Source of the DNA: Batillaria attramentaria
Lineage: Eukaryota; Mollusca; Gastropoda; Batillariidae
Assembly (NCBI GenBank): GCA_018292915.2
Contig: JACVVK020000146.1
Span: forward strand, 627,501 to 691,500
DNA: 64,000 nt
Direction: 5' to 3'
Shown here: positions 824-50,485 of the stretch, one piece after another
Position numbering within the stretch: position 1 is the stretch's first letter
Layout: every line of letters begins with the position of its first letter
The notes under the pieces: model-generated
Database searches by the model: none
The model's input: the letters and a program-made list of their open reading frames with translations, nothing else
Told to the model about the DNA's origin: nothing
Translations under genes and position numbers: made by a program

Positions 824-889
<66 letters not shown>
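366..889. repeat. Low-complexity stretch with TG/CG and TA microsatellites
   Basis: No gene is seen here. A TG tract passes into alternating CG at about 475-525, and a long (TA)n tract occupies about 827-889 directly beside the ribozyme-bearing array. The second array near 44762 is also bordered by a (TA)n tract, at 44709-44761. Confidence 0.8.
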
Positions 890-891
<2 letters not shown>

Positions 892-1195
892 GAACACAGG
901 CGTCGATAAAGCCGAAAACACGCGCTCAGTCAGGTCAATTTGAAAGCAGGGGAAGTAAGTAAAGCTGGGAGCGCTCCCTAGATCTAGGAGATGTGCGCTT
1001 TGTATGCCATTGCACAAGTCCGCCTTGCCCTATATTGGCTACAAACCGCAGTGGAGGGGCGGGGGGAATCTACCATCCTACCGCTAAAACGTCTAACAGA
1101 TCTAAGGGTATCTCACCATTCATAGGGCCTCCATTCCCCTCCCACCGGGAGGAAAATGGTCGGTACAACCAAGGCCATATGAATTGGTGATTTTA

Positions 1196-1253
1196 GCCGC
1201 TCACGGCCATGGTTTCGGGTCAATGGGACCCTCATCAGGTGAGCATGCGGCGA
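1196..1253 (-). ncRNA. Type I hammerhead ribozyme motif 1 (cleavage triplet mutated)
   Basis: On the minus strand the core CTGATGA, a 5-bp stem II (GGGTC/GACCC) and GAAAC are intact, and stem I strands GCTCAC and GTGAGC pair. The expected GTC cleavage triplet reads GCC, which breaks the A15.1-U16.1 pair, so this copy is probably inactive. Confidence 0.75.
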
Positions 1254-1802
1254 TACCCCAGAATAATCTGGTGCGTCTCCAGTACTAGCAGACGTCGCTA
1301 CCCTAAAGTTCTGCAAAAGGTTTCAGCAGAAAAAGACTAAATAATTTAGGTGGGAGGGGAATGGGGGCCCTATGAATGATGAGATACCCTTAGATCTGTT
1401 AGACGCTTCCGCGGTGGGATGGTAGATCCCCCCCCCCCCGCCCCTCCACTGTGGCTTGTAGCCAATATTATATGGGGCAAGGAGGACTTGTCCAATGGCA
1501 TATAAAGCACACATCTCCTAGATCTAGGGAGCGCTCTCAGCTTTACTTACTTTCCCTGCTTTCAAATTGACCTGATTGAGCGCATGTGTTCGGCTTTAAC
1601 GACGCCTGTGTTCCTATTCTATATTAAATGTAAATGCACGACATGACACCTAGGCAGTTGCTCCTTCTAAATTATTTAGTCTTTTTCCGTCGAAACCTCT
1701 TGCAGAGCTTTAGGGTAGCGACGTCTGCTAGTACTGGAGACGCACCAGATTATTCAGGGGCAGCCTTTTAGTGCTAGTCGGACGCTGCATCCCTCGTGGT
1801 TA

Positions 1803-1860
1803 TCGCCGCATGCTCACCTGATGAGGGTCCCATTGACCCGAAACCATGGTCGTGAGCGGC
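1803..1860 (+). ncRNA. Type I hammerhead ribozyme motif 2 (core intact, inverted unit)
   Basis: On the plus strand the order is GCTCAC (stem I), CTGATGA, stem II GGGTC-CCATT-GACCC, GAAA, a very short stem III in CCATGG, cleavage triplet GTC, then GTGAGC closing stem I with six perfect pairs. Every conserved core base of the hammerhead is present. The palindromic CCATGG could let two RNAs form a dimeric ribozyme, as proposed for animal hammerheads with minimal stem III. Confidence 0.88.
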
Positions 1861-2213
1861 TGAAATCACCAACTGCTATGGCCTACCGTTGTACCGACCA
1901 TTTTCCTCCAGGCGGAATGGGGGCCGTAAAGCCGAAAACATGCGCTCAATCAGGTCAATTTGAAAGTAGGAGCAGTAAGTAAAGCTGAGAGCGCTCCCTA
2001 AATCTAGGAGATGTGATCTTTGTGTGCCATTGCACAAGTCCGCCTTGCCCTATATTGGCTACAAGCCACAGTGGGTGGGTGGGGGATCTACCATCCTACC
2101 GCTGAAACGTCTAACAGATCTAAGGGTATCTCACCATTCATAGGGCCCCCATTCCCCTCCCACCGGGAGAAAAATGGTCGGTACAACCTAGGCCATAGGA
2201 ACTGGTGATTTTA

Positions 2214-2271
2214 GCCGCTTACGACCATGGTTTCGGGTCAATGGGACCCTCATCAGGTGAGCATGCGGCGA
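2214..2271 (-). ncRNA. Type I hammerhead ribozyme motif 3 (one stem I mismatch)
   Basis: Core and GTC triplet are intact on the minus strand. Stem I has GTAAGC against GCTCAC, giving one A-C mismatch. Confidence 0.83.
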
Positions 2272-2470
2272 TACCCACGAGGGATACAGCGTCCAACCAG
2301 CATTAAAAGGCTGCCCTAAATTGACCTGACCGGAGGGGAATGGGGGCCCTATGAATGGTGAGATCCCCTTAGATCTGTTAGACGTTTCAGCGGTAGGATG
2401 GTAGATTCCCCCCCGCCCCCCACTGCGGCTTGTAGCCAATATAGGGCAAGGCGGACTTGTCCAACAACAA

Positions 2471-3040
2471 CAACTACAACAAAAAGAAAAAACAAACAAA
2501 CTAACAACAACAACAAAAATGATAATAATAAAAAACTTTGGCGCTAAATATCATAAATTTGTGACTACTGGTTTTCTTTGTTTAAGTCGTGCAAATTTCA
2601 AAGTCAGAGTAAACCCCATACAATTTTTTTTTGGGGGGTCAAAAATAGAAGTTGTTAAAATCGTTCCTCTGCACCTTTAACAGTTTTCGCGTCTCATTAT
2701 GATTGTTCCATTCCTCTAATTACTTCGATTCCGGCCGAAAAAAAGACCTTTGCAGCTGACAGCTCTACCGTCAAAGCGCTTATCAGAGCTGTTAGGCCCT
2801 TTTACCAAATGATGGTAGAGCTCTGCACCAGATAGGTGACATTGCATACGATATACTGTTGGCCTCACTGTTTGGGGAAAATGGTTGGCGCCATCTTGAA
2901 GCCGATCCAAACAAGACCATTGTCCAGCGCATTCTGAGTCCATGTTTTCGCAAACTTTGTCAGCAAATTGGTGATGTCACGCCATTGTTCAGACCTGGAC
3001 CTGTAAGTGTTTGAATGGGTCAGGCCTTATAACCAGGTAA
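2471..3040. other. Non-coding segment, intron of receptor D1
   Basis: No exon was recognised. The sequence is closely repeated at about 46563-47125 in the other copy, where it lies between exons of receptor 2, so here it should be intronic. Confidence 0.6.
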
Positions 3041-3045
3041 GACAA

Positions 3046-3145
3046 GGGTGGGTGGGTGTTTGGGGGGTTTAACGTCCTTTTCCACCACATAGAGTGATAT
3101 CAAAGACCAGGCAACGATGAAAAAGCCAGAACAAATATTTCGAAT
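3046..3145 (-). mobile_element. SINE tail fragment (tRNA-derived SINE family)
   Basis: The block with GTTTAACGTCCTTTTCCACC and GTGATATCAAAG is the 3' body of the SINE found many times in the window; the tRNA-like head is missing. The twin locus near 47140 lacks it, so it arrived or was lost after the duplication. Confidence 0.8.
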
Positions 3146-3371
3146 ATTATTGAAAAAAAAAAAAAAAGGCATTGTAAATCGACGGTTCCCCATCAGAACG
3201 TAATCTCTCTCTCTCTCTTCTATACGACCATCACGTCATATTCCTTTAGCAGAGATGATTGTGAGACCTGAGCAAATGAAATGTTTTGCCCACCACATTA
3301 CGCGCTTCTATGCATGCGATTCTACTGAGTCAAAACTTTGCTTCTCAATTTTTTTTTTCAAGATAATGTAC

Positions 3372-5277
3372 ATCCCTCCAGTAAGCCCTCCTCCCATCCC
3401 GGTTTCCCAGGAAACCAGCGATGAACTTCTCCCAGTTCATCCGACTCAGGTGTCGGATGGTTCATCTGCAGTCCCTGCCAAAGAGCTACTACATGATTCT
3501 TGAAGCATACTGTTTAGCTGCACTGAAAATACTCTTAAAGACCAGCGAAACCGTTGGTTTGAGTAAAAACGACAAAACACAAACCTAAAACGTTGAGTGG
3601 TGGTATTTGTGAGCACTCTTGTCCCAAATGACTGAACATATAAAACAGTTAAATCTCAAACTGATCTGATTTGAACCCCGACTTTTGTACCCGCTAAAGC
3701 TGGAAATTTGAGCGCCGCGTTCCAAACACCAGTTAGCGGCCTCTCTCCAAGTGCTGCTCCACCGAGAGTAATCCGGAAGAATGAGAAAGTGACAACCACC
3801 CCCGGCTTCAAGAAAACCAGGACCACACTGACGGCTACTGTAAGGGCACGCGGCTTCGTCCTCATTGTCCACACACTGAGCCACCAGGTCACAGGGGAAG
3901 TGGTGCCGGAAGTCGGCCCAGTAAGGCACGGAACAGTTCCACTGGCCGCCCGGCAGCTGCAGTGGCACTGATGTGTGGTTGTGGAAAGAGAAACTAAGGT
4001 TGAAGCCCGGATGGGGCTTGATGTCAAAAGCCGCGATGAAGTGCCAGTATAGAACCGGAGTCACGTGCACTGCAGTAGAAGGCGGTACCATTCCACAAGC
4101 CGCCCAGATCCTGTGCTGAGCGGTGCTGCCTCCTTTATAGAACTCCAGACCATTATGACGACATTTAGAACTGTTCAGAGGTAAAGGATAACGCTCGTGG
4201 AAGAGGAAATAGGTGAAGCTGGTCATCACCGAGAGTTCCTCAGGCACGATGAGTCGAATCCAGGTGTCGGCGGCACGCGAGAGCTGTTCATGACAGCAAT
4301 GAGGGCTTTGGGCGTAACCTGGGAATCATCATCATCGTCAGCATCATCAAATGCTACAAGAGTTTCGTATATATATATATATATGGCAAATTCCGAAAAT
4401 GGACGCCCGACACCTCAGTAACAATCATATTGACTTAGGTCAACATGTTACACTCCAACCTCTCCAGGCAATACCTCAATCAATTCTTAACAAGAAATAC
4501 AATTAAGAGCATTTGAGTGCATAACATAATTCTGAAACACCTGCACTACGTACCTCTGACTGGAGAAGTGAACTTTATAACTCCTTGTTCACGCCATTGT
4601 GCTGTGAAGTTGAAAGCTAGAAAGTGTGCATCATCTATGTAACCCTCTTTAACTGTCAGTACCACAGTCATGGTGTTGGACAAACTGTACAGCGATAGAG
4701 GACCACAACCTGTGTAATACTTCAAAACTCGTCCCGAAACGGTGTCACGCATTTCCCAGAAGTTGCCAGCCCAAGAACAGCTCGGTTTCTCTTCCATGAC
4801 CCGCAAGAAGATGAGGTGCCCCGGATCGACAGTCAGGACAATGGGGCAGACATTTATCGGGACACGGTGTTCGGCTAGTTCAGGGCGGAAGTCGAAGGAG
4901 ACGACACCTGCATTAGCTGTGACTCTAACCTCACTCTTCTTGGTGATGCAGTCGGTAATGGCCTTTGTAGTCAGATCCAGACGGACAAAACTACCGGTTC
5001 GTTCAGGGACCACGTCAGAGGAACTGTTGTCGCATGCTGACGTACTGGTGCCCTTTTGTACAAAGGACGTACTGTGCTCACCGTTGCTTGCTGGGGACAC
5101 GGTGATTGTGTACGTCCCAGACTGAACATTGTTCTGTGTCACTGAGGTTTCTTCACTGTCACCAGTCACGCGTGACTGTGTGGAGATTACGGAGGCAAAA
5201 CACGCCATGGTGATGATGGCAAGCATTGCCGCTTGATTGGTCAGGTACCCTGCAAGTCTCGACGTCTCTTGCTTCAT
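3372..5277 (-). CDS. Receptor D1, 5' part: CUB/C-type lectin GRL101-like receptor (3' exons outside window)
   Basis: This is the N-terminal half of a receptor like gene 2 (40695-49278), nearly identical to it. Exon 1 (5277-4554, ends phase 1) starts at MKQETS, has a hydrophobic signal peptide (AAMLAIITMACFASV) and a CUB-like beta-sandwich region. Exon 2 (4318-3691, phase 1 in, phase 2 out) carries a whole CUB domain starting GYAQSPHCC, an LDLa-like module (CDLVAQCVDNEDEAAC) and the start of a C-type lectin domain (CGPGFLEAGGGC). A likely exon 3 starts at 3444 (NWEKFIAG, AYWRD); its 3' limit near 3372 is unresolved. The protein would be secreted to the surface with its ectodomain outside. The lectin end, LDLa/LRR part and seven helices should lie left of position 1, but the twin relation stops near 890, so this is not visible. 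Confidence 0.85.
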
Positions 5278-5337
5278 GTCAACAACAACAACAACAACAA
5301 CGACAACGATAATAATAATAATAATAAAAAATTGCAT
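5278..5337 (-). repeat. AAT/AAC trinucleotide repeat in the 5' leader of receptor D1
   Basis: Read on the minus strand, (ATT)n then (GTT)n sit directly before the ATG at 5277 and stay in frame with an upstream ATG at 5337, which would add a run of Ile and Val residues. The matching tract before receptor 2 (49281-49341) has a different length. Confidence 0.75.
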
Positions 5338-5514
5338 TTATAGGGCGTATTTCTGAAAATAAAACTCAAGGCGCCGATCACTCACCGACACTCACTCGCA
5401 ATTTACGATGGACAGACATACACTGGTGAAACTGACTACTACACAGGAAATTCCTGAAAGGCTTTGCAAAACAATTTGAAAACTGCTCTTAAAAACAGAC
5501 AGTGTGGGCACATT

Positions 5515-5650
5515 TCACAGATTTGCAGGCAGAGAATTGCAATAGGTTGGAGCGACAAAACTGAAAGAGCGCTCGCCAAAAGATTTCAAGTTGCACTTAG
5601 GAATTTCGAGAAGCCTCCTCTCGGACGACGACCGGAGGATTCGCGACGGT
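5515..5650 (-). pseudogene. Relic of LINE reverse transcriptase C-terminus
   Basis: The minus-strand translation PSRILRSSSERRLLEIP followed by GERSFSFVAP and NSLPANL matches the C-terminal pattern of the LINEs at 34085 and 35761 (PSRNLRSSSDTRLLRIP, GQRAFSYIGP, NGLPSHIR). Only this short tail remains. It is duplicated at 49528-49663. Confidence 0.75.
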
Positions 5651-7434
5651 TGATAGGCGACAAGTGTAATAACAATGGTAATAATCACGGGGCGTAATAC
5701 AACTTGAAAGAACACGGCGTCTGATAATAACCTGCCAAGGACGCAAGCGCTATGCAAAGCCCCGTATTCCCCAGCCTGCAAAGCGATGACACCGACATTC
5801 GGGTCCCAAAACAGACGGGCACTATCCGAGCGGGCATTGTGGGCGCTTGGTGGGACTTTTCAACCGGATGCATCAAGAACACTGTCTTTGCCGTAAATTG
5901 ACATAAATACTAAGACGTGAACAAAGTAACAAAAGAAAAAAGAGAAAACTGGAAGGCAAAACACTACGGCGCAGCTGTGACCGAACGAACGGATCAGTAC
6001 AGTGTTTGACCCGTGAGGGAACAAGTTTGTATAACTCATGCCTGCACAGCTACTCCTGCCTCAGGTTGACAAGAGCACCCGACCTTTTATCACAGTCTGT
6101 CAAACATTCAGCAGTAAATACTCAGAGATCACAGGTCCATACATTCTACATAAACCCTACTCAAGATTGACGAAATTCCAATATATCAGAGTTGGAAAAA
6201 AGCCCCCCCCAAAAAAAACAAAACAAAAACAAAACAAAACAAAACAAAAAACAACAAAAACCCCAAACAACAACAACAACAACAACAAACCGTGGTTGGG
6301 ACTCCTGGAGAGGGGTTGGGGTGGGGTGGGGTGTCAGGTTAAGAACTGCCTCTTTCAAACAATGAAGACCGTTCCCGGGGTTGCCTTGCCAGACTTTGTC
6401 TCGATATACTGACAAAATATGTATCACGATACACAAGTTCTGGAAGGCAGCGTAGGGATAAAGAATCATCTGTTTCATTATCTCCAGGGCAGATACACGG
6501 TACTAATGAACACTAATGCGGGTTTACATTGCAAGCTCTGTTGTACACAGATATATCATCAGTATCACCAGTCCCGTTAACTGCTGTTAAAGGGCAAAAT
6601 ACAGTAAGTCCACGAAGAGAAGTGTGGATGTACAGTGTTTTTCCACTACATAGCATCAGTCAGGCGAAGTGTTTGTCTAACTGATGTAATAATTATCATC
6701 CTAGCAAACCAGACGATCACGTTGCAGATTAAGGCTCAGGTTTGCTGCTGGACCCGAAGCTTTAGTTTTTCAGGGCTGAGTCAGAAAGGCAAATACCAAA
6801 GCACAGGAAAACACAAGCCGAACAATACAAAAAACAATTACAACTGGAAAAAGAAGGCCATCTGGACTGACTGACACAGTACAATGTACACGCACATCAA
6901 CACAGCTCCGTGAAGAATCATAACAGGACATTGCATCACTTGATAAGCCTGAAGGCCATGAGAAAGAAACACAAATCTTTATCATTTATAAACGTTTGTT
7001 TCTCAAAATATATTTTCGGTTGTTTTGTTGGTGATATTGCTGTTTGGTGTCACGTGCATACAGCTGAACGCCAAATCTGGACGCAAGCACAGCCGAACAG
7101 TCTAAAAAGAGAGCAAATTAAAAAGCAGAAATTTGATTCTATTCCAAATTGGTCTATTCCACAAACTCCTAAACGGTTTGGAGTATGAAACATTGTACCC
7201 ATATACTACAAGGAACAGGAAGGTTTTGTTTTTAAACAATGCATGATGGTTTTAGCCACTCACAAACTTGACTGTTACCATAATTTCCTAAGTGTAAGTA
7301 TATCTGCCAATGTAAAATCTGAGCCACTATGCAAACGTTAAAGGTGACCATACAGTCTGAACATATAGAGGCTAAAGCCAATTTCAAGTCCTTCATCCTT
7401 TGGTCACACTGTCCGTTCAAATTCTCGTTTTTCT
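5651..7434. other. Intergenic stretch between receptor D1 and receptor A
   Basis: No convincing exon. It holds an A/C-rich tract ((AAAAC)n and (AAC)n, about 6205-6290), where copy B has the large P3 insertion. From about 6300 to 7434 it matches 54015-55163 closely. The 3' untranslated region of receptor A must start at 7434 and run left; no clear AATAAA was singled out. Confidence 0.6.
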
Positions 7435-9525
7435 TCAGTCCTGCTGTGGTTTTGGTGTCTTTGGTGCATCGCGTCGTGCCAAGAGAACTTTACGCATTCG
7501 CTCTTCAAACTTCCGACGTCTGCGTTCCTGCATCATGCTGAGGATGTAGAGGAAAGGATCGAGAGCTGAGTTGAGCGGCAAAATTATGATTGTCATGGCG
7601 ACTCTGATTTGGCTGGACATGGGAGCTGAACCACTGGCGTGTCTTAGTCCCATGAAACCAGCAACAAGCCAACAAAGCGAGTTGGTCAGTACAAGGTTTG
7701 ATAACCCATGGGCAAAGGAACGATTCTGACAATGTTGAGACTTATCAAATATATATACCTGTGGGACCCGGCTAAAGACGCGAATGAGAATTTCGCATAC
7801 TACCATCACCAGAGACAGTACAACGTTTAAGACAATGATCACCCCAAACCAGTTGCCAGAGCCAGAAAATTCTGATGTGCTTACAAGCAAGGGGAGACAA
7901 ATACTGGTCTGGGCATAAAACTGCCAGTGTGAAGTCATGGGTAAAAGAGGAATGGACGCCAGCGTGATGCCCGCTGCCCAAACAAAGAAGCAAGATACTT
8001 TTGAGGACAACTTTCCAAACTGAAAGCGCTGGGGAAGCCTTAAAACAAACAGGCGGTCGATAGAAATGACACAGACGAAGAAGGACGACACTTCAATGGA
8101 CAAGAGTGACAGAAAGCCTGCTATCTTGCAGGCAGCACCATTTCTCCATTTTGTATCGTGTAAGAAGTATTCCCCTTCGTACACACGGTCCGCCACGACT
8201 ATTACTGTTACAGACAAACCCATAATGAAGTCGGACACAAAAAGATGTGTGCTAAATAAGTTCAAGCCAGTATGTGTTCTTGATCTGCCGATAACCACGC
8301 TGTAAAGAAAATTAGCAAAGTTTCCGGTCATTGAAAGTGCAGCCAGAAAGGCGAGAAAAATGCGATACGTGTCAGAGTGCATCAGATTGTCACAAGACGA
8401 GATCTCGTCAGGCGGAGCATGACAGTTCCGCAGGTTGAAACCCTCGGGCAGTGTGGCCGGACAGCACAGCTTGTAGTTGTCAGCGTACACAGTGTCTAGA
8501 TATCGGAGGTCCTGAAATGCACCAGGTGGGAACACGTTCATGGGACATCCACGCAGATCTAGCACCTGCAGCTGATTGAGGGACTGAAACCCTTCCTCGG
8601 AAACAATATCCAACTCTGTTCCTGAGAGGTTTAACAACTGCAGGTTGGGGAAGGTGCTAAAAATGCTGACATTAAGTTTCTGTATGTTAACACGAGAGAC
8701 GTCCAATGTCTGAAGCTGCTTGGCGACGTACTGTGTAGGTGTATTATGCTGAAACAGACCGATGAGTGGGTTGCCAGTTAAAGACAAAGTCATCAGGTTC
8801 TGCGAGAGACTGAGGTCAGTAGATGTGATGGTCGTTATGTAGTTGTCACTGACATCCAAGCTGCGGAGATTCGGGAGTTGAAGATTATCCAAACTCACGA
8901 GGCCGCACTGAGCCAGACTGAGGTAGATCAACATGTCGTTTGTCTTCACATCCGTTGGAGTCATACTAGTACCACGGGCGTCCAAGTAGCGAAGATGTGG
9001 ATAGGAGTGTGCTGGGAAAGAGGTAGTACAGAAAAAGGCCAGACCATAACACACACAGTTTGTGGGACATGAAGCGTTACACAGCAGCTCGTCATCGTTC
9101 TGCGGACACTGGAACACACCGTCACAAATGTTACTGGCGTGAACACAGATACGTGAAGCACGACAGCGGTAGAAACCTGGACACGTGTAACTGTCACATT
9201 CTGCCTCGTCCTCTTTACCGGGACAGTCGTACACGCCGTTGCAACGCACGTACACCGGCAGGCAGTAACCGTCACCTGTACACTGGAAGTGGGTTTCTGG
9301 ACACATGACTCTTGGTGGTAACACTGGCCAGTCAGCATCTGTAGGCACTATGTACCGGACTTCTTCAAAAGCTTTAAACAGCACCACTGCTGGCGGAAAT
9401 GGAGTATGGAAACGACGATTATTGTTAAAACCTACCTCTTCGTCAGACTTACAGTCAATTTTATCTTCGTCTGATCCATCCACACAGTGGTCCTGTCCAT
9501 CACACCACTGGCCTTTCACCAGGCA
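7435..9525 (-). CDS. Receptor A exon 6: LDLa modules, leucine-rich repeats and seven-helix domain
   Basis: The exon opens after TTTTCTGTTAG with CLVKGQWCDGQDHC, which completes an LDLa module begun in exon 5. Two further LDLa modules follow (CPETHFQC to DEAEC; CPGFYRC to DDELLC). Next come an LRR N-cap (CPTNCVCYGLAFFC), about seven leucine-rich repeats and a cysteine-rich hinge (YKLCCPATLPEGFNLRNC). Seven hydrophobic segments follow. TM3 ends SIDRLFVLRLP in place of the DRY motif, TM6 has LCWLVAGF, and TM7 has LNSALDPFLYI, where Asp replaces the Asn of NPxxY. A basic tail (QERRRRKFEERMRK) ends at the stop 7435-7437. Receptor 2 has the normal NPFLY. Confidence 0.95.
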   Translation of the reverse strand, partial: CLVKGQWCDGQDHCVDGSDEDKIDCKSDEEVGFNNNRRFHTPFPPAVVLFKAFEEVRYIVPTDADWPVLPPRVMCPETHFQCTGDGYCLPVYVRCNGVYDCPGKEDEAECDSYTCPGFYRCRASRICVHASNICDGVFQCPQNDDELLCNASCPTNCVCYGLAFFCTTSFPAHSYPHLRYLDARGTSMTPTDVKTNDMLIYLSLAQCGLVSLDNLQLPNLRSLDVSDNYITTITSTDLSLSQNLMTLSLTGNPLIGLFQHNTPTQYVAKQLQTLDVSRVNIQKLNVSIFSTFPNLQLLNLSGTELDIVSEEGFQSLNQLQVLDLRGCPMNVFPPGAFQDLRYLDTVYADNYKLCCPATLPEGFNLRNCHAPPDEISSCDNLMHSDTYRIFLAFLAALSMTGNFANFLYSVVIGRSRTHTGLNLFSTHLFVSDFIMGLSVTVIVVADRVYEGEYFLHDTKWRNGAACKIAGFLSLLSIEVSSFFVCVISIDRLFVLRLPQRFQFGKLSSKVSCFFVWAAGITLASIPLLPMTSHWQFYAQTSICLPLLVSTSEFSGSGNWFGVIIVLNVVLSLVMVVCEILIRVFSRVPQVYIFDKSQHCQNRSFAHGLSNLVLTNSLCWLVAGFMGLRHASGSAPMSSQIRVAMTIIILPLNSALDPFLYILSMMQERRRRKFEERMRKVLLARRDAPKTPKPQQD

Positions 9526-9958
9526 CTAACAGAAAAAGACAAGTAACATTAATGAAAACAGCGTAACCATCTTCTTCCTATTGTCACCATTCCAACAAAG
9601 TATATCGTGGAACTAAGTCCGCAAAGGAGGCAGTCAACATCACTACATTTCAGAAGAGTGACAAGGGACTAATTTCCTCATATTTAACAAACCATTTGCA
9701 TGATCCCTCAAAACCATTCCCTAGGCGCTGTAAGCACTCGGGATGGAGCTATATTACCACCAGACAGTCCTGAATGATTACCAAAATCTCTCTTTCTCTC
9801 TCTCTCCAGCCCGTCCCAGTACTCTCCCATCAGCCAAATCAACTCCTTCGCTTGCTTCCTCTAGGACGGTCTCTTCAAGTTTTAACAAGATTAAAGCTTA
9901 TACACAGATCTATGGAATGTACCCCTGATATGAGCAGCATTGGCTCAAATAGACTGCA

Positions 9959-10028
<70 letters not shown>

Positions 10029-10634
10029 TGAGTTAAAATGTGTAACTTGTTTCTACATTTTTGTCCTATATTCCTGTAGCTTATAGATTTTTTCCTTTGC
10101 TCATATTCTCGTAGTTTAGCAACGGGAAGTTCGAATATGGTATTCATGCCAAAACTTCTACCGTTGGAAAATAAAGATTATTGTCATTGTCTCTCTCTTT
10201 CTCTCTCTGGCGCGGGGACAGCTTTCGATTTGCAAACGGTGTCATATTGAACAAGGAGGAACGGCCCCGTCCTACAAAGTTGTTTCTCCAAACTTCATAT
10301 TATTTTGTCTGTTTTGTTGTTATTGTTGCCGGTTCTACCCTCTCCAAGTTCTACCAACGACACTAGATCCTCTACGACCTCGACCGGTTAGCCACGTGAC
10401 TGGGGGTGGGGCCGGGTGGGGGAAGAAGGGGGAGAGAGAGAGAGAGGCGGAGATAGAGGGTGGGTGGATGGGTGTTTAGGAGTTTAACGTCCTTTTCCAC
10501 CACAAAAGGGTGATATCAAGGACGGGGCAACGAGAAGAAGGCCAGCACAAATATTTGGCCCCAGCGGCCGGAATTCGAACTCTCGGCCCAAGCATTGAAA
10601 GTCCAACGCTCTACCATTCGGCCACCCTGGCTCC

Positions 10635-10690
<56 letters not shown>

Positions 10691-11639
10691 CATTTTCGTG
10701 AACTAAACATTTGCCGTCAGCCTCAGGTAGGTCGTCATACAGAGAGAGAGAGAGATGACGTCAATTCCGTGAACTAAACTTTTGACGTCAGCCTCTAGCA
10801 CTGAGATCGTCTGAGGATGCTTGTTCATGTCTTGTGATTTCCCTGTTCGCTTTGTGACTTCTCCGACTGAATTATTTTTCACATGAAATCTGGAAGATCT
10901 AGAGGGCTGATGAAATGTCGGAAGCAGTGACAATACTTGCAGATTTTGTCTCTGAACCAAACATTTGACGTCAGCCTCAAGCTGCTCGTCTGTCAGGTGA
11001 TACTTCTTCATATCTTGTGATTTCCTTGTTGTTTCTGTGACTTCCGTGACTGAATTAATTTTGATATAAAATCTGGAAGATCTAGAGAGCTGATGAAACG
11101 TGGACTTAAGTGCCTCGGGTTGTACTTACGAAATTGCAAAATTGGAACTTTTTTGACCAGCGCTTCTCGCAGAAACGTGAAAAAATGTGTTTATCTAAAA
11201 GCTCTGTTATTCTTAATACTAAAGCTATAATAGTGCAGTAGTTCATGTCATATGTGCAGTTGGCATAAGTGACAAAAATACCGGAATGATGAGTAATTTG
11301 AAAGAGTCTTTTCATAGATATTTGGCCTTATATGCAAACAACCCCTACCTCGGAAATATTTTTTTTACACAAAACCAGTCAGAGCTACAGAGCTGTAGCA
11401 CGAATCAAGGCAGTGTGATTGGGTGAACTTCCAAAGTCTAGCAAATGAAGGAATTTGAACAACTTTTTTGAAAAAATTCGTAACATGACCGATTTTTTAA
11501 AATTGGCGATAACTCTTCTGAAAATGCGGCAGGCTAAAAATCGTGAAAGGTAGCTCTGGAGAAGGTGAATTCCCATTTTATCTCAAAGTAAAAAGGCCTC
11601 CAACGAGGTGGTTTAGGAGATAGTCATCATTACATCCGT

Positions 11640-11703
<64 letters not shown>

Positions 11704-12821
11704 CTCCCGCCAAAAAAAACGCAGCAGCATAGTGTGCACGTAAGGTGTCTATGACGCAGATTTCGTTACGTCACTGTGTGCGTGAAAGTAAGTATTGTGT
11801 GGAGAAACGTCACAGTCTTGTATTGTATCACTGAAACTTGCTGCTGCGCGTAGCAAAATCTGCCCCGTCTCATAAAGTTGTTTCTCTATAGAGAAACAAC
11901 TTAAAAATGACCTTTTAAAAGGTTCTTAGGCCCTTTCTCCACAGGACACTAGACGTAGAGAAAATGGTAGACACTAATTGGAAAGCACCGATATTCGCTT
12001 TCTTTTATTCGCAGCAAAGACGACATTAAACCCTGTTCACTACTCCCATTGCATATAATACATACGAAGACAGACATGTCAACATTCAAGCAAAGAAGTT
12101 ACTATGCATTACCTGGCCATTCCTACAGACGTAAATGCTATCACATTCTCTGTGAACGCAAAAACTTTCGTCACTGTCGTCTTGGCAGTCAGACCGGAAG
12201 TCACACACTAAAGTAAATGGCACGAGTTCCAGAGAGCCAGCACACCGGAAGGATGGCGGCAGTGGTTTCAATGGCGCAAGACAAGAGTCATGTGACCCGG
12301 ATTCACGAGACCAGCACGAGGTTCGCGCGTCACAGGCTAGGAAGCTATGAGTACTATGATTGGCAGGACATCGAATGTAAGATTCCAAAGTTTCGTCGAT
12401 GGGACGGGCTGGAGTTGGGAAATGTACACCAGAAACAGAGTCCACACTGTCGGATACATTTTGTTCACACAGAATGCCGGTGGAAGGTTTTCGCTCGCCG
12501 CAATTCGACCCTCCACGAAGTGACTCCAAGTTAAGCAGGTAGTCACTCTGTGACCTGATGGAAAACCAGATCGGGTCAGATGTTTATTGTTTATCCTTTT
12601 ATAAGCACCAAAACAAACAAGAAAAAGCAAGTCTATGCTGAGAATGGAAAGCACGAGGTGGATTCAGTTGTAGTGATTAGATTCATTGATTCGGAACAGC
12701 GGTTTGATTACATCAGAATGCCGCTAAAAATAGAACCGATGAATCTGACTGTGATACGCGGAACTACTTTCGAAGTAGTAATAATTTCGAATAAGACGGG
12801 CACGCTAACTTTGCCGAGTCC

Positions 12822-12918
<97 letters not shown>

Positions 12919-13016
12919 AATGAAATGAAATGAAACTTTATTTTCCAAGGTTAAAAAAAATATAGGTACAACGACCTGTCTTCTATCTTGTCCTTGCTAA
13001 ACTAGGAAAACTACAA

Positions 13017-13065
<49 letters not shown>

Positions 13066-13076
13066 AATGAAATGAA

Positions 13077-13154
<78 letters not shown>

Positions 13155-16100
13155 CTTTGACTGGCTCCCTGCTCATCAGGGGTCTCTATCCAGGCCAGCA
13201 AATTAAAAAAAAAAAGTGAGGTACGTTTGTTGGTGCCGTATCGTGGATACGCGCTTCCAGCTGGAGAAGCGATCCGAATTTTTCGAAAGGCTTTAAACAA
13301 ACAAACAAACAAACAAACAAACAAACAAACAAACAAACAAACAAACAAACAACCCCTAACGTGCTGATCAGCGTGAAGCAGTTTGAACTGAGGCCCTTTT
13401 CCTGTTCGTCCACTTCATGGCTGCCCTTCTCACTGCCTCTCTCCATTCGCTGCAACAGTCCACCTCTGTCGATGAAAGTGTGGTATCCCACGAGTCCACT
13501 TTCCCATGTGTCTAGTCCGTGATAGCGGTACCTGCAACCACACAGCTGTTCACTCCCATACAACCCGATGAATATTGAAAACTGGAAACTTGTAGGGCAC
13601 GACATGAAAGAGGACTATTTGACTGTGGCAACATGTATGAAAAAGTGTGTATAAAGTACACACGCTGCAAGTATTTAAAGGTGGTGTGTTTAGTGAAAAT
13701 GCCCTTTACACGAAATGGATGAAGGACGTTGCTAATGCCTCTATGGCTCTCAACAGCTACCCTATCTCGACACAACACAAATCAAAGCAAGTGTTTCACA
13801 AAAAGATATTAAACTGGTTTGGCCACGTGATCGCGGGGGGGGGGGAGCTACATCAGTACACGTCAATTTAGCTTACACTCTGGGCAGAGCCAGAGACGCG
13901 GAGCGTAGTCCGAGAAAGATCTCTTTCACGCTCAGTGCCACCAACGTCTGGTTGAGAGCTGGCAGGAAGTCTCGCCATTTCTCGTACGTGTCCAGACTGG
14001 ACAGTCGCTCGCCGCGAGCACGACAAACGTCAGATGCTTCCAGCCACGAGATTTCCGAAGCACCCGGCTTGAGCAGCACGTGACAGCTACCGCCTACTGC
14101 AATATACCCAGGACCGCATTTTGTGCTAGTGTAAGGACACAAAGCTTCGTCCTCGCTCCGCGCGCACTGAGACGCTAAGTCACAAGGGAAGTGCTGCTGG
14201 AAGTCGGCCCAGTGAGGCACGGAACAATTCCACCGACCGTCTGGCAGCTGCCCGGGCAAGGCCGAATCGTTGTGGAAGGAAAACATGAACTTGAAACCTC
14301 CGTTGTAGGCGAAAGGAATGTTGTGGTTTGCGTAGTTCACCAGCAGTGCGTCTGCCTTAAGGACTTCAGGTTGGGGTCGAGAGGTTCCACACACCTTCCA
14401 GACCTGAGAATTCGGAGTGCGAATCATTCAAACAGCGGAAAAAACCCAAAAAGTTTCAGAACACGCCTAGAGGACAATAGACAAGACACATTCAAAGGCC
14501 TTAAGTTTAAACATACATCCTGCAGGTTTAATATGTTCACTGACCGTTTTAGGCTTATAACCATGACAAGAACATGATACCATTTGGAAGAGTGCAAAAT
14601 ATGAACCACTTGGGGGCTGTCGTTGGTAACATATGAGCCAAAACGTGAGCCAAAACATGCGCCTGCCGCCTACTTCACATTCAAGTGAAGTGACGCGTTT
14701 GTATGAAACAGACTGTAGCTACGGTCAAGTCGTCTCAGTGCAAGTCGCACGTGGTCGCTAGCTACATTACAAATCCACAAACCTCTAAAATACACTTTGG
14801 GAGGACCACTGAGTCAATAATGGCAGCGTCTGTGCAAGACACGTTTTTGACACGGTGATAATTGCTCATCCTGCCAGATGTCGCTTTAAGACTTGCAGGC
14901 TCACCGTGAGCTGTCTCGGTGCTGTCTAGCATCAAACCACTAAGACACATGTCCAGTCAGGCGTGCGTTCAGCTGATTGAAGCCAACACGCAGTAGCCGG
15001 TGACAGTGTGATGACCACATTCGACTTTGTAGCTGGGGTTTCCGCGTTTGCACGGCCAGTTTAAACGTCAGTGTGTTGTATTCGGAGCTCTACTAATCTC
15101 TGAGAGCGCACAGGCGCAGTCACTGGCGCAACTGTTCCAAAACAACAGTCTTGTCCATGAAAGTGTGTCAGTTCGTTATTTAGGGCATAACGCCGCGCAA
15201 GCAACAAAGACTATTTCGCGGATAATCAAGGTCCCTCTTCGCCAGACTAAAATAAAAAGGAGTGAGTGACTGAGCTTTAAGGGCTTAAAGCCGCGCAAGC
15301 CACAAAGATTAATTCGCGTAAAATAAAAAGGAAGAGAATAAAACAAGGTGTAAATAATATATATAAAAATCTATCCGGTTTAAACAATAAACACGTTTCG
15401 ACTTCTTTGTACATGGAACATAGAGAGATCGAGGATAGTCCGTATTACTTGAGGTGTCTACATTTTACAGAACAGATTTGACTCTTTCAAGAAGCTAAAG
15501 CTGCTGTCAGGGGGAACATCCCGGAACAACACCTTCAAAGAATCTGCGCGGTAATGTTTTACGCGAATCTCGGCAAGATCCACGCACGAGATTCTCTATA
15601 TGTAACCTATTAATCATTGCAGTGGCACCTACAATTTTTTCCCCCAACTCTTTTTGCCAGCACCAGCGGTGTTCCTCCCAGGTTATGGGTGGAATCCACG
15701 GAGGGCTCGAAAGCTGGGGCAATTTTTATTACACATGATGATGGAGATGAGGATGATGGTAAGATGATGCTATGGAGGTCCGTGTGGTTTGAGACTGCGG
15801 GACAGGGCCGCATTCACGCTTCCTGTCACAAATATCCCGGCGTTAACCAGGCCCAGGAACTACGGCACCTGCGGTGCCGGCCGTATAATCACCCACATCA
15901 TAAAACGTGTCATACCAAGGGAATCACCTCCAAAGTCGCACCCGTGAAGTGGGTGAGTCTCGACTGTGTGGCAACAGCCTCCCCATTGGGCCCATCGGGC
16001 ACCGGTTCTGGGTAAGATCCGACCTACATCTACAATTTTCAGTTGCCACCGCTGTCTCCATGTACAGATTGAGATAGGTCGCGCTGTTCTTGCATATAGT

Positions 16101-19039
16101 TGTTTTTTCAACTTTTAAGGGCCTTTTCACCTGAGCATTCGAGATTAAATTTGTCGCACCAATTGTTCGCTACTCCTTTTAGGCCTTTTGGTCAATTGTT
16201 CCCCTAACATTCTGGCGGTCTTTTTTGCATGAATTCGAAAACCAACATACAAAATGAGGCCTGGAGGGGCGAGGGGTTGTGGACTAAAGAGGAGAGAGAT
16301 GTTAGTGGTGTTTTGAAGGTTAGGTTTACATCGTTTGCATCTTTTGTCCACTGCTAAGTTGATTTCAAAGATTAGGGCACTGGTGGTAAAGGACCTGCAC
16401 ACTTTTGGTCCCTTCGGGATTCGAACCCGCGTACCTCCGATTTCGAGTCAAAGGCTTAACCGGTTGAGCCACCCGACACCCCGGCCGAAGGGGAGCCAGG
16501 AGGCACCAGCGAGGCACAACAGTTTTTTTTGTTTTTTTTTGGAAGACCATGTTTTGAATATGTGCTTGTTCGCATCGCCTAATCCTGTCTGCGTCACTGG
16601 TGTCGTCACAGTTCTTTTACTGCGTCAGTGCGTCAAAACCCATTCGCCGTATCACGTCGCCGTCTGTGCGTGATTATCATGAGTATGCCATTGTGTTGAT
16701 CGCTTTATTGCGTCTGTGAGTGATTCGCTCTACTGCGGGTGCGAGTGATCGCTCTGTTTCGTGTGTGAGTGATCGCTTTATTTCGTGTGAGAGTGATCGC
16801 TTTATTTTGTCTGTGAGTGATCGTTTTATTGTGTCTGTGAGTGATCTTTTTCTTGCATGTGTGAGTGATCGCTTTATTTTGTGTGTGAGTGATCGCTTTA
16901 TCTTGTGTGTGAGTGATCACTTCATTGCGCCTGTGAATGATCGCTCTAAATATTGCGTGTGTGAGTGATCGCTTTATTGCGTGTGTGAGGATCGCTTTAT
17001 TGCGCGTGTGAGTGATCCCTCTATTGCGTATGAGAGTGATCGTTTCATTGCGTCTGTGAGTGATTGCTTCATTGCGTCTGCGCGTGATCGCATCGCTGTG
17101 GACGGTTAGCATGGGTCTGCCTCCCAATATTTCTTTTTCAATTCTTTAAATGTCTTACCTCACTAGCGATGGAGTGTGTTTCAGTTTTTACCTCCACGTA
17201 ACTCCTATGACTCCAGCACTGCGCCCTGACAGACAGACGAGCAAAAACATGGACGTGAAGAAAGTGAAAGCTGATCATCGCTGACTGACCCATGGGCACG
17301 CCGATTCGGGCAGAGTAGTCACCGACGGGGAAGGTCCGAGTCAGGTCGCAACAGCCGGGAGTCTGAACATATCCTGGACACAAGGGTCAGTAAGTAAGAC
17401 CTAGCCGAGTAATAAGTTTGCCTCGGTAGAACCCTTCTCAAAAGTCTGCAATCTCAACAAAAGCCACAAACAGCGTTTTTTGTTTTTTTTTTAAATTTTT
17501 AAAAAATTAAAAATAAAAACTAACCAACTGTGCAAAATGCACAGCTTTTGAGTTTTCTGTGTCCCTGAAACCCATATAAAATCCAAGGGCAGCCTAACTT
17601 CACAGCTCACTTTGCGTTTTGAAAATGAGCGAGAACGATCGCAGTGGCTAGTCCTCGTGCAGCACCCAACACCCGCTCACTGTTTCGCTCACTAACCAAA
17701 AGCACCATCAAGTCACCGCAAACTGACTCTCTGGTTTTATAAGGGTCTCCGAAGCGCTGAAAACTCTGCAACTGTGACAGGGCTGCCTGCATTAAGCCTG
17801 CTCTTGGGCACTGCGGAGCACCACAGTGCTGTCCACAGTTGTGGCACAGTTGTGATTTTGGGTGTTTCCGCCGCTGTGGCGTCATCACAGCAACCTGGAT
17901 TTCTAATAGCCACAACTGTGACTGTGGTTTCCACAACAGATTCTGATCGGCTGTGCTACGTCACTCGGCGCACAAACATGGCAGACAGTGCTTCTTCAAT
18001 CGATTTGTCACCGAGCACAGCTGTGTTCAGTTTTGTAGTTAGTAGACACACCGAGCGCAACGACTGAGACTCACTATGCTTATCCTCTGCACTGACCCGA
18101 AATCGGCTAGCCGAGGGTGGGTGGGGAGGGGTTTCGGTTTTTAACGTCCTTTTCCACCACATACGGGTGATATCAAACACGGGGCAACGATGAAAAAGCC
18201 AGCACAAATATTTGGCCCCAGCCGGGATACAAACTCACGATCCGAGCATCAGAAGTCCAAAGCTCTACCATTCGACCACCCCGGCTCCCCTCGGCTAGCC
18301 GAGACCTGCGCCGAGACAAGTGATATTTAAGAAGGACAAAACAAAAATACTCGGTGACATGGAAAATGGACAGTTCTGGAGAACTTTGTGGTCAATGTGG
18401 TATTTCACAGTGCACAGAAGCGGTGAGTTCTGTCGCATTCACCAGCACAGCACATTTTCAGCCTGTTTCAGAGATTATTGCCTGCATGATTTTTCTGCCT
18501 TGCCGCAACAAGCACGCATGTTTGTTTTTTTTTTTGGTGGCAGAGCCAAAGTTGCCACGAAAAATGCATGCATATTTCAGTTCTGTGTATGCACGGGCAG
18601 CATCGGCTGTCCATATCAGGTCAGTGCAGAGGGTAAGCGTAGTGAAACCCGATGGTACGGATTGGATTAACCCTGGCTGATTCCGGAAACGGGATTCGGG
18701 AGAGACTGGACAGTTCGCAACCCAGGCAGACACTGGTTTCTAGATCTTCCGTCCCGCACACAAACCGAGTCGGACAACGAGGGCCTGCGGCCAAATTTCA
18801 GTCATGAGTTTTCGTCCCTTTTGTTTTGGGGAGTTGTCTGCCTGTCGGTCACAACACTGACTGTGCCTTAGTTGGAAGAGGAAAGGACTGATGAAGGTTT
18901 TGAATTGACAGGAATAGTTGAATGAACGATGGAAAGACAGTTATCGTATGTAGCGAAGGACAGGACTGAAGTTTTTATTCGCTTTCATTCCTGTCCGTGT
19001 GTGGCAGAAAGCTACGGATTCTCTCTCTCTCTCTCTCTG

Positions 19040-33840: not shown

Positions 33841-35210
33841 AAATAATAACAATAATAATAATAATAATGAGGATTTGTCTGGCGCCCAACCTCTTGCTGG
33901 AGCTCTGGGCGCCTCACAATAGTAGGGTGGAGATACAGTACATACATATATATATGAAATATGTCACATTACATACAGTTACACATGATATACACGTCAC
34001 ATACACGTTACATACACACAGCTATGATACACCCTGACACGACAACCTAAAATGACAATGATGATAGCTTTGATGATAAAGAAGTTAGTTTGTGTAATAT
34101 TGCCGGAAGAAATAAGACTTTAAAGCGACTTTAAAAGAGTCCGTTGACTCTGCATGGCGAACATGGGCAGGCAGGCTGTTCCAAATGACTAGACCGTGGT
34201 AGAGCAATGCTCGCTGACCTAGTGTTTTCGATTTAACCTGTGGAATGCGTAGGATGCGGGTGTCAGCGGAGGATCTGAGTTGTCTGGAGGGTGTGTACAG
34301 CTGCAGCAGAGAGGAAAGATATGAAGGGCAGGAGGCAGTGATGCAGTTATAGCATATAGTGGCCACTTTATACTGAATTCTTGCTCTGAGGAGGGGTGTG
34401 ACCTGCTCGGATCTCCTCACTCTAAACACAAGCTTTGCCGCAGAGTTTTGGACTTTTTGTAGCTTGTCTAGCAGATATTTCGGACATCCAGCACACAAAG
34501 AGTTGCAGTACAGACATCCAACTCTTGACATCTGAAATGCACCTCAGAAGGCACTGGATGGCATCCGGAAGAAGTTGAAAAGTAGTGTGTTTATACAACT
34601 GAGAATCGTCAGCTAAAGCATGGCGAGATACAGAATGTTTATCAATCAGAGCGGACAATGGTTGGGTGTACATTATAAACAAAACTGGTCCTAACACGGA
34701 GCCCTGAGGGACGCCGAAGCGCAGGGGACTGGAGGTAGAGTGTTGACTGTTCACTAAGACAGTCTGAGAACGCTGGCGTAAATATGATTCAAACCAGGAA
34801 AGGGTTGTGCCAGTGATGCCAAAGACTTTCTCAAGTCTATGTATCAAAATATCATGATCTATTGTGTCGAAAGCCGCCGATAGATCGAGCAGGGCTAGAA
34901 CTGAGATTTTTCCGTCATCCAGAGCCATCAGAAGGTCATTGACAATCTTAAGGAGTGCTGTCTCACAGCTGTGACCAGGTCTGTACGCAGACTGACAAAC
35001 ACTAAGTAGGTTGTTTGAACACACATGCTCAGCAAGCTGAGACAGTACAAGTTTCTCAACGATCTTAGACAGAAATGGGAGGTTTGAAACCGGCCTGTAG
35101 TTTTTCAAGTTGTTCGGGTCTAGAGAGGGCTTTTTCAGAAGGGGTTTGACAATAGCTGTCTTGTACACTGATGGAAAAGAACCGGATCTGAGTGAGTCAT
35201 GGCTTAACAT
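33841..35210 (-). mobile_element. LINE fragment A, reverse transcriptase with internal deletion
   Basis: The frame 35210 to about 34530 has NYRPVSNLPFLSKIVEKLV, LLDLSAAFDTIDHDIL, GVPQGSVLGPVLF and ALADDSQLY, the reverse transcriptase core of CR1/L2-like non-LTR elements. It breaks after SWMS and resumes in another frame near 34520 at the CNSLCAGCP region, continuing to FKVALKSYFF and a stop at 34085. About 110 residues are therefore missing. The 3' UTR contains GGCGCC pairs and ends in (ATT)n at 33841-33870 (minus strand). It is 5'-truncated and dead. Confidence 0.88.
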
Positions 35211-42514: not shown

Positions 42515-44706
42515 CTGCAGGCGTAAGAACACAAATTGACTGTGGGGGTCATATGCAGTGTTTATTTGAAGAACCCTGTTTAGCAAGTGTGCTAGTTTGC
42601 AGTGATTTTTGTTGTCACGAAGAAGCGCGATTTTCGTGATTTTTGTATTTTGCAAGGCAAAGCACGTGCCAGGGGGCCGCAAGAAGAGGCAAGCTGCCAG
42701 TGAAGCTGGGACTTTTCGCGCAGATGTCGGGGACAAGTGACATTAGTAGAGTTGAGTGAATTGGCTTTCTGGCTTAAACAGAAAGTAGACTTGCATTACT
42801 CCAGTTAGGCCAGAGCAGAAAGGCGACATTTTTTTTTTTATATAACTAATGTTCTGTGCTTGCCCTTGAATGGTCTGCGCATGGTAGTTTTTATTTCTAG
42901 ATTGAAGCATTTTTAGGGGTGACTGTGACGCCTGAGGCTAATCGGGAATATAAATTGGCATTGGAGGCACCGTGCATTTGTGTTCTTTTACCTGCACACT
43001 GGAAGTGGGTTTCTGGACACCTGGCGGATCCTGTCAGTGGCTCAATGGTGATTCGTCCTCGTCCGTGCATGTACACAACGGCAGGGGAAGGAATACTGTT
43101 CTTCCAGTAACTCGCTCGCCGACCGCAGTCTATTTCGTCAGTCCTGTCTATGCAGTGATCCATGCCGTCACACCACTGATCCAGTCTCACACACTGAAAG
43201 AAAAGTAATAATAATAATAATAATAATGGCGCTTTATCCCAGATATTTGGCTCAAAGCGCCACGATCTAAACCCAACACGCACGCTCACGTGAATCACAT
43301 GCATTCTCTCAAATACGGGAAATGAACACATTACAATCACGTGGTGCGAAGCGCCAGTTCAGCAATTTAAGTTTCGGAATTTTTAGAATTGCATTTATTT
43401 CTGAATTTTGTGGGATGAACATTTCCAAAGCAGAGGGGGAGGAAGCCGGAGTACCCGGAGAGAACCCCCGACGGTCGGCCCGAATGAACGGTGCCACATA
43501 CGAGTCTGTTATATAAAAAGTAGAACGTGTTAGTGGAAAATATGGCAAGAGGAATCCTGGTCACAACGTCCCATGGTGAAAGTTTGGACAACTCGTGGGC
43601 AAAAGAAAGAGGAAAGCCTGTGAAGCTGATCCGAAAATGTGTGAAATTTTACCACCGGCCCAAAGACCGTAGATATCTACGGTCTTTGACCGGCCCTTTA
43701 GGATTTACATCTCGGACGACAGAAAACACCACTACCAATACTACCATACCCATCATCATCTACAAAAAGCAGTACCTGTTTATTACGACACTGACGCTGC
43801 AGAGTCGTGCATTTTGGGTACACACAAAACTGTTCGTCATCACTGCAGTCAGACCGGAAGTCACAAACTAGCGTGTACTGCACGTACTCCACGCCACTGG
43901 AGCACATCATGGAAGGCGGAAGTGGCGTCAGTGGCGCGAGACAAGAGCCAGTCGACCGGGATCCACGTGACCAGCATTCACTCCGCACGTCACAGGCCAG
44001 GAAGTTATGTGTGGTATAATTGGCTGGGCACAGCACGTGACGGATGCTGGACACGAAGAAGCCAGGGTTGGCAAGTGTGATACGCTGGACGTGCGACTTA
44101 CTGACCTTAGACACGTCCTCACACAACACCGAACGGAGAACACGTCTGTGGCAGGAACGAACGTTGAGATAAGCAGTTCTTATGCGTAATGCACCGCAAG
44201 AGGGATTGTTTGCGTAGTATACCTTACGCTTTTGCAGGTAGTAGGCAATAGATCCGTCCATCCACTGGCCAAGACCGAGGTACCTCAGACACACCAAAAC
44301 ACTTGGATTACACATACAATCACTCTAAGAGGGAGCGTCCTTAATTTTTGAAACCTGATCAGACTAATGCCGCCACACTAAATCAAACGACCGTAACGGA
44401 TGTCTAGCCCTCCTCCTGATTAATTTTGGTGCTTATAATACATAATGGATACATGAGTGTATGTACCCATAATTTTTTTTTCTTCTTTTTGTTTGTTTGT
44501 TTTTGTCTCCTTATTTGTCTTTTCAAAACAAGTTTTGCTTCGTCTTTTTTTTGTTTTTTTTTTCTTCAGGTTTTTGTTTTTGTGTTTTGTTTCTTTATTT
44601 TTTTTGTACATCCACATGTGTAGCTATAGATGGATTCAATGTACTAAAATAACTGTGTACGTATGTAAGTCCCTATGCATGAATGTATGTATGTATGTCA
44701 CAGAGT

Positions 44707-44763
<57 letters not shown>

Positions 44764-49278: not shown

Positions 49279-49311
49279 GTCAACAACAACAACAACGACA
49301 ACGACAACGAC

Positions 49312-49344
<33 letters not shown>

Positions 49345-50463: not shown

Positions 50464-50485
<22 letters not shown>

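What the first reader, a model, noticed from the sequence alone, without database searches (positions are those of the whole stretch)
940..2470. Repeat arrays carrying six type I hammerhead ribozymes inside a receptor gene cluster
Each full unit of the arrays at 0.94-2.47 kb and 44.76-46.56 kb contains CTGATGA, a 5-bp stem II, GAAAC, a minimal stem III in CCATGG and a cleavage triplet, closed by 6-bp stem I strands GCTCAC and GTGAGC. Five of six keep the whole core and the GTC triplet. Hammerheads in tandem repeats of a few hundred bases are known from animal retrozymes, which circulate as small circular RNAs. The unit here is longer (about 575-730 bases) and includes inverted copies.
Basis: partly seen in the sequence, partly recalled or inferred. 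Interest (0 to 1): 0.88.

Follow-up and report, generated by a model that had tools for sequence, protein, structure and literature searches.

The report
Ribozyme repeats inserted both ways round
Two introns in what is likely a snail genome hold old copies of a roughly 555-base repeat carrying a predicted self-cutting RNA, found hundreds of times in that genome; newer copies often sit back to back inside TATATA runs with a different fixed end on each side, a pattern that suggests a Penelope-type copying enzyme, probably reading small RNA circles, writes the repeat into both strands of one break.

Summary
The six hammerhead cores exist. Two are intact (1812-1857 +, 45003-45048 -), three have a stem I mismatch, one lost its triplet. 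None reaches Rfam's gathering score, probably because stem III is only the palindrome CCATGG; two copies together are predicted to fold as a double hammerhead. The arrays lie in an intron of GRL101-like receptor genes and were duplicated with them, so that setting looks incidental. The 715-Mb host assembly holds the perfect 46-nt ribozyme 698 times, in units of about 555 bp. Younger two-armed insertions are joined 5' to 5' with 3' ends outward in (TA)n; of 24 with both ends classed, 22 were read with one arm ending at unit position 518-519 (A) and the other at 587 (B), one had B at 589, one B end was not reached; none was A/A or B/B. Units differ 0.15% within an arm, 1.47% between loci. A Penelope-like element in the same genome shows the same target, two 3' ends and 5'-5' joins. 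Best reading: a retrozyme-like passenger of Penelope-type reverse transcription, probably from circular RNA, primed on both strands. Cleavage, circles and mobilisation are untested.

The parts
890..2464 (.). Array 1: degraded units in orientations - + - and a partial +; left end next to (TA)n, near end B
44762..46559 (.). Array 2: three - units, a short inverted piece and a partial + piece; left end next to (TA)n at unit position 516 (end A)
1199..1244 (-). c1 hammerhead: stem I 6/6, triplet GCC instead of GTC
1812..1857 (+). c2 hammerhead, intact; Hammerhead_1 24.7 bits (cut-off 34)
2217..2262 (-). c3 hammerhead: GTC kept, stem I 5/6
45003..45048 (-). c4 hammerhead, intact
45735..45780 (-). 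c5 hammerhead: GTC kept, stem I 5/6 (duplicate of c3)
46312..46357 (-). c6 hammerhead: GTC kept, stem I 5/6
827..889 (.). (TA)n run at the left end of array 1
44709..44761 (.). (TA)n run at the left end of array 2
46961..47080 (-). Small lectin-like exon of a GRL101-like receptor gene, upstream of the intron with array 2 (weak match, E 1.6, placed by position and motif); copy at 2871-2990
43698..44324 (-). Open frame with the next receptor exon (protein matches up to about 44315), on the other side of array 2
1865..18120 (.). Segment repeated at 45377-64000 with gaps; its left edge lies inside the arrays

Best explanation
The two arrays are old copies of a non-coding tandem repeat of about 555 bp, present with a perfect 46-nt type I hammerhead motif 698 times in the host genome, that is likely copied, probably from a small circular RNA, by a Penelope-type reverse transcriptase predicted to prime on both strands of a break in (TA)n DNA. 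Shown: the ribozyme family and its period, the (TA)n sites, the two-armed 5'-5' architecture, the A/B end rule, the near-identity of units within an arm, and a Penelope-like element in the same genome with the same kind of sites, ends and joins. Inferred: (1) tandem transcripts cut themselves, best as dimers because stem III is the palindrome CCATGG; (2) monomers are ligated into circles; (3) a Penelope-like enzyme opens (TA)n and each strand primes cDNA, one from site A and one from site B, 68 nt further on; (4) each cDNA runs round the circle up to several times, giving arms of near-identical units that stop at variable places; (5) repair joins the two cDNA ends, giving the inverted arrays.
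For: 698 exact copies, reversed control 0. Opposite-strand neighbours 10 divergent, 1 convergent among 100 listed places; strand switches 23 divergent, 2 convergent in 40 clusters. Eighteen two-armed clusters: nine A/B, nine B/A, none A/A or B/B; fetched ends: A at 519 in 18 of 18, B at 587 in 16 of 18, (TA)n at 34 of 36 ends against 326 of 10,800 random positions. Six further loci read in full agree (L048, L053, L097, L099, L100, L103). Units: 0.15% difference within an arm, 0.36% between arms, 1.47% between loci; 0 of 2000 permutations. Dimer cofold of c2 is a double hammerhead. Penelope-like element: GIY-YIG, 1018-aa frame, hammerhead-like motif in 19 of 30 fetched, partly overlapping loci, two 3' ends at (TA)n, 5'-5' joined copies at C177 and C566. 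Precedent: PAc extends both strands, cuts AT-rich DNA and starts at two adjacent sites (PMC11167929, section 3).
Against: No RNA data. Only 6 of 30 Penelope-like ORF loci have a ribozyme unit detected in their flanks, and no sequence shared by the unit's A-B stretch and that element was found beyond inserted pieces, so the partnership rests on shared insertion form. Pfam gives no reverse transcriptase domain for the 1018-aa protein, and its hammerhead-like motif alone does not fold as a hammerhead; a canonical scan found none in that element. PAc showed no strand difference in start site and did not need hammerhead cleavage. Some two-armed loci have another kind of end: L058, L060, L098, L101, L102, L105 and clusters on C16 (the L105 locus), C322, C650, C601. 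One B end was not reached and one lay at 589. Many loci are one-armed. The clusters are the best 40 of 1444 candidates. CCATGG is only one of 18 of 256 tetranucleotide settings that give the dimer fold. In the window no array has two intact ribozymes on one strand.
Confidence: 0.6

Rival explanations
1. The same Penelope-type, two-strand insertion, but the template is a linear multimeric transcript of a genomic array, not a circle; the ribozyme is carried along.
For: PAc inserts unprocessed RNA and its hammerhead is not needed in vitro (PMC11167929); Penelope-like elements stand in tandem.
Against: Units are almost identical within an arm and locus but differ between loci, so each insertion would need a different, internally uniform source array.
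Confidence: 0.25
2. Ordinary satellite: units spread and were made uniform by DNA-level recombination, conversion or rolling-circle DNA, with inversions by repair.
For: Tandem units and locus-specific uniformity are also satellite traits; rearranged arrays in the window.
Against: Two fixed outer ends, always mixed A with B in classed two-armed loci, and (TA)n at 34 of 36 ends are not expected from recombination within arrays.
Confidence: 0.08
3. A DNA transposon or foldback element with a TA target.
For: TA target; inverted arms; in L047 and L053 the flanks of the (TA)n look inverted too.
Against: Arms differ in length, join at variable 5' points, and end at two different places, A and B, so there is no terminal inverted repeat; (TA)n, not a TA pair, adjoins.
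Confidence: 0.03
4. Intronic ribozymes that act on the receptor transcripts.
For: Arrays are in an intron and 5 of 6 ribozymes are sense to the gene. The catalytic strand is invariant: 0 of 45 columns vary against 55 of 291 elsewhere. Precedent: SmPoMuc genes of Schistosoma mansoni carry an intronic hammerhead (PMC2576457, passages).
Against: Four of five sense copies have a damaged triplet or stem I; the repeat is dispersed; a third paralogous intron keeps only a remnant without an intact ribozyme (L104); BLAST shows no unit in the window outside the two arrays, so gene B's introns there have none.
Confidence: 0.04

Closest known systems
Metazoan non-LTR retrozymes (Cervera and de la Pena 2020, PMC7229834; parts 1-3 of 6 and passages read)
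   Same: Non-coding tandem repeats with a type I hammerhead in animal genomes; weak stem III as in newt and axolotl; genome also has Penelope-like elements
   Different: Unit about 555 bp instead of 150-450; two-armed 5'-5' insertions with mixed A/B ends in (TA)n; circular RNA not shown here
Penelope-like elements, especially PAc of Anolis (PMC11167929; section 3 read)
   Same: AT-rich target, hammerhead, tandem arrays, two alternative 3' ends that define a tail, extension of both strands
   Different: The unit encodes no protein; tail 68 nt instead of 30-40; the two start sites fall on opposite arms, whereas PAc showed no strand difference
Minimal hammerheads of Penelope-like elements that cleave as dimers (Luense et al. 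2017; title seen in a reference list; paper not held)
   Same: Minimal stem III and predicted dimer action
   Different: Here stem II is 5 bp and stem I 6 bp; the motif sits in a non-coding tandem unit
Intronic hammerheads of SmPoMuc genes, Schistosoma mansoni (PMC2576457; passages)
   Same: Hammerhead repeat in introns of a duplicating surface-protein gene family
   Different: There in all genes sequenced by the authors; here a dispersed repeat that lies in some paralogous introns

Membership tests
Hammerhead ribozyme, type I | Conserved core CUGAUGA..GAAA..UH with stems I and II | tested here: met
   c2 and c4 complete; c1, c3, c5, c6 each with one defect
Hammerhead ribozyme, type I | Rfam Hammerhead_1 gathering score | tested here: not met
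   24.7 of 34 bits for c2; none at gathering in the window
Hammerhead ribozyme, type I | Self-cleavage | not testable with these tools
   needs RNA
Metazoan non-LTR retrozyme | Tandem repeats with type I hammerhead, no protein coding | tested here: met
   698 exact copies, period 550-558 bp; in L047 the longest open frames in the units are 74-78 aa
Metazoan non-LTR retrozyme | Unit of 150-450 bp (paper) | tested here: not met
   550-558 bp
Metazoan non-LTR retrozyme | GC below 50% | tested here: inconclusive
   window copies 48-53%; monomers 49.4-49.5%
Metazoan non-LTR retrozyme | Abundant circular RNA | not testable with these tools
   no RNA data; identity of units is indirect
Penelope-like element (the 555-bp unit itself) | ORF with reverse transcriptase and GIY-YIG | tested here: not met
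   no such ORF in the units of L047; the unit is at most a passenger
Penelope-like element (the 1018-aa element of this genome) | GIY-YIG endonuclease domain | tested here: met
   PF01541, E 3.7e-07, above cut-off
Penelope-like element (the 1018-aa element of this genome) | Reverse transcriptase domain | tested here: inconclusive
   no Pfam match; an FRDDG-like stretch seen by eye
Penelope-like element (the 1018-aa element of this genome) | Tandem copies, hammerhead-like motif, two alternative 3' ends (tail) at AT-rich DNA | tested here: met
   tandem frames on C177 and C566; motif; ends 55-59 or 131-141 nt past it

The most novel reading that the evidence does not exclude
A Penelope-type enzyme takes ribozyme-made RNA circles as templates and writes them into both strands of one (TA)n break at once, with a dedicated start site for each strand, so that a complete insertion is a two-armed inverted array with one A end and one B end. 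This would name the missing engine of animal retrozymes and a double-ended form of target-primed reverse transcription.
Probability: 0.45. Interest if true: 0.88.

Novelty: new variant of a known kind. Interest (0 to 1): 0.74.

Why it matters
Animal retrozymes give abundant small circular RNAs, but in the papers I read the enzyme that spreads them is not identified; only their co-occurrence with Penelope-like elements is noted. A fixed, two-ended insertion signature shared by a ribozyme repeat and a Penelope-like element in one genome makes that link testable from genome sequence alone, and it predicts that such an enzyme starts at a different RNA site on each DNA strand. It also accounts for the inverted ribozyme arrays.

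Tried and rejected
Exact core and a looser core pattern in viral contigs: 0 hits each. The looser pattern in prokaryote contigs: 38 hits, none with stem II of at least 3 bp and stem I of at least 4 bp together, so probably chance. ARAGORN: no tRNA in the window; in one unit no pol III B-box match and one loose A-box match. The reverse-transcriptase frames at 34.4-37.0 kb match RVT_1 and were not found tied to the arrays. Regulation of the receptors by the ribozymes: kept as a minor rival. Non-allelic recombination between arrays as the driver of receptor duplication: the left edge of the repeated segment lies in the arrays and the left flanks of the two arrays do not match apart from (TA)n, but part of a fetched flank reads N, so this stays open. 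Another copy of the sequence to the right of the arrays, in L064, starts at the array's right edge and has no array; I could not tell an empty site from a later loss. Whole-unit circular folds are more stable than shuffles (z -2.5 and -7.85), but the second value is helped by an inverted piece. Two central papers (PMC4209133, PMC5785218) are not held. On whether the A/B plan is in print: searches (listings, abstracts' beginnings) showed no paper that describes it; inverted and truncated Penelope copies as such are known to me from memory only.

Full report
What was claimed and what is there. The window holds six copies of a type I hammerhead core in two arrays. Places and states: c2 and c4 are intact; c3, c5 and c6 have one mismatch in stem I; c1 has lost the triplet. 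A strict structural scan finds c2 and c4 and nothing in 200 shuffled windows. Rfam finds no hammerhead at its own cut-off; the one slice tested alone scores 24.7 of 34 bits. The likely cause is stem III, which is one or two base pairs in the palindrome CCATGG. Hammerheads with such weak stems III are reported to act as dimers in newt and axolotl (PMC7229834; PMC6155905, passages). Folding agrees: the monomer's minimum for c2 is not a hammerhead (-21.3 against -16.4 kcal/mol for an active fold without stem III), while two copies of c2 give the double hammerhead as minimum, -48.2. 18 of 256 tetranucleotides at that place do the same, so the palindrome alone is weak evidence.

Conservation. Among columns covered by at least five window copies, 0 of 45 vary in the catalytic strand, 4 of 11 in the cleaved strand and 55 of 291 elsewhere (Fisher p 0.0003 for the first against the rest, 0.23 for the second). 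The longest invariant run, 49 columns, is reached by 52 of 20,000 shuffles. The six copies are not independent: c3 and c5 are duplicates.

Where the arrays lie. Receptor proteins of the window match GRL101-like proteins of snails, best named matches from Batillaria at 52-54% identity, with LDLa, LRR and 7TM domains. Exons found with relatives place array 2 in an intron between a small lectin-like exon (46961-47080, weak match) and the exon at about 43.7-44.3 kb; array 1 lies downstream of the copy of that small exon. Genes and five of six ribozymes are on the minus strand. A segment from 1865 rightwards recurs from 45377 to the end of the window, at 97-100% in the stretch next to the arrays. 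A third copy on the contig has a remnant of the array between matching flanks, without an intact ribozyme. So the array is old and was inherited with the receptor duplications. A cluster of GRL101-like genes is associated with schistosome resistance in Biomphalaria (PMC12297450, passages), but nothing here shows that the ribozymes take part.

The family in the genome. The window is part of a 715-Mb assembly. The perfect 46-nt ribozyme occurs 340 + 358 = 698 times, the reversed pattern never. Among the 100 listed places, 27 of 30 same-strand neighbours are 550-558 bp apart, and 10 of 11 opposite-strand neighbours point away from each other. A window unit is about 87-94% like the genomic units compared (longer pieces), while a young unit is mostly 94-100% like others.

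The insertion plan. In fetched loci the 3' end of an array, in ribozyme sense, mostly stops at one of two unit positions, 519 (A) or 587 (B), and (TA)n follows. Two-armed loci are joined at their 5' ends, at variable positions. A DNA search (40 of 1444 candidates scored) gave 214 matches, of which I used the 150 listed; they form 40 clusters. Eighteen are two-armed with both ends classed: nine A-left/B-right, nine B-left/A-right, none A/A or B/B; four more two-armed clusters have one end of another kind; the other eighteen are one-armed or otherwise arranged. I fetched both outer ends of the eighteen: A at 519 in 18 of 18; B at 587 in 16 of 18, one at 589, one not reached (C82); (TA)n adjoins 34 of 36 ends, against 326 of 10,800 random positions in fetched loci. 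Six more loci read in full obey the rule: L048, L053, L097, L099, L100 (A at 518) and L103; L054 is a near-duplicate of L053 and is not counted. Together 22 loci were read as A/B, one has B at 589 and one B end is unread. Two-armed loci that do not fit or could not be classed: L058, L060, L098, L101, L102 and L105, and the clusters on C16 (the L105 locus), C322, C650 and C601. The window arrays themselves keep only their left ends: array 1 near B, array 2 at 516; their right ends are truncated.

Template. Over a common 281-nt stretch, 46 units from 13 loci differ by 0.15% between same-strand units of a locus (43 pairs, 28 identical), 0.36% between opposite arms (48 pairs) and 1.47% between loci (944 pairs); 41 of 45 units have their nearest relative, ties included, in the same locus, and 0 of 2000 label permutations give so low a within-locus value. 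The simplest reading is that an insertion is read from one short template, several times round: a circle made by the ribozyme. A uniform linear multimer is not excluded.

The likely enzyme. L047 carries, between two arrays, the C-terminal 541 aa of a protein with a GIY-YIG domain; the full open frame elsewhere is 1018 aa. Pfam shows no reverse transcriptase domain, so that part rests on analogy. The genome has 87 scored matches to it. The element has a hammerhead-like motif past its ORF in 19 of 30 fetched, partly overlapping loci; a canonical scan does not accept it. Its 3' ends fall 55-59 nt (L067, L068, L069, L078, L081, L095) or 131-141 nt (L071, L073, L074, L079, L080, L085) past that motif, flush with (TA)n of at least four pairs; L072 and L077 end near the first place at shorter TA runs, and others run on into a neighbouring copy. 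At C177 two minus copies, the outer one ending at the first place, are joined 5'-5' to a plus copy ending at the second; at C566 the arrangement is the reverse (pieced together). Thus the protein-coding element and the ribozyme repeat share target, two-ended tail and architecture, though only 6 of 30 ORF loci have a unit in their flanks. The Anolis element PAc was shown in vitro to cut AT-rich DNA, to extend both strands, and to start at two adjacent internal sites that explain the Penelope tail (PMC11167929, section 3). Two of its results do not fit simply: no strand difference in start site, and no need for hammerhead cleavage.

Verdict. The receptor setting looks incidental. The new content is the two-armed A/B plan and its link to Penelope-type copying, which I rate likely but unproven.

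Noticed in passing
213-386: Near-perfect palindrome with 86-nt arms and a 2-nt spacer beside array 1; as DNA it folds at -72 kcal/mol, z -18.7.
   Followed up: partly
about 408-460: Sequence ending in TTTGTAAAGTCAG(TA)n that looks like the second 3' end of the Penelope-like element seen, next to array 1 (read).
   Followed up: no
16697-17091 and 62565-62964: Minisatellite of a 24-bp unit TGATCGCTTTATTGCGTGTGTGAG in both copies of the duplicated segment.
   Followed up: no
34422-37017 (-): Two frames matching RVT_1, remains of a retrotransposon that Pfam recognises, unlike the Penelope-like ORF.
   Followed up: partly
G000 contigs C2, C4, C5, C6: six rows: A second recurring CTGATGA..GAAAC..GTC sequence with a GCCGG..CCGGC stem, possibly another hammerhead family.
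   Followed up: no
L050 2793-3077: Three solo pieces of unit positions about 525-587, the A-to-B stretch, each next to (TA)n: tails without a body.
   Followed up: no
window copies c1-c6: Four of five sense copies in the intron have a damaged triplet or stem I, while the single antisense copy is intact; few independent events, so only a hint of selection against cutting.
   Followed up: partly
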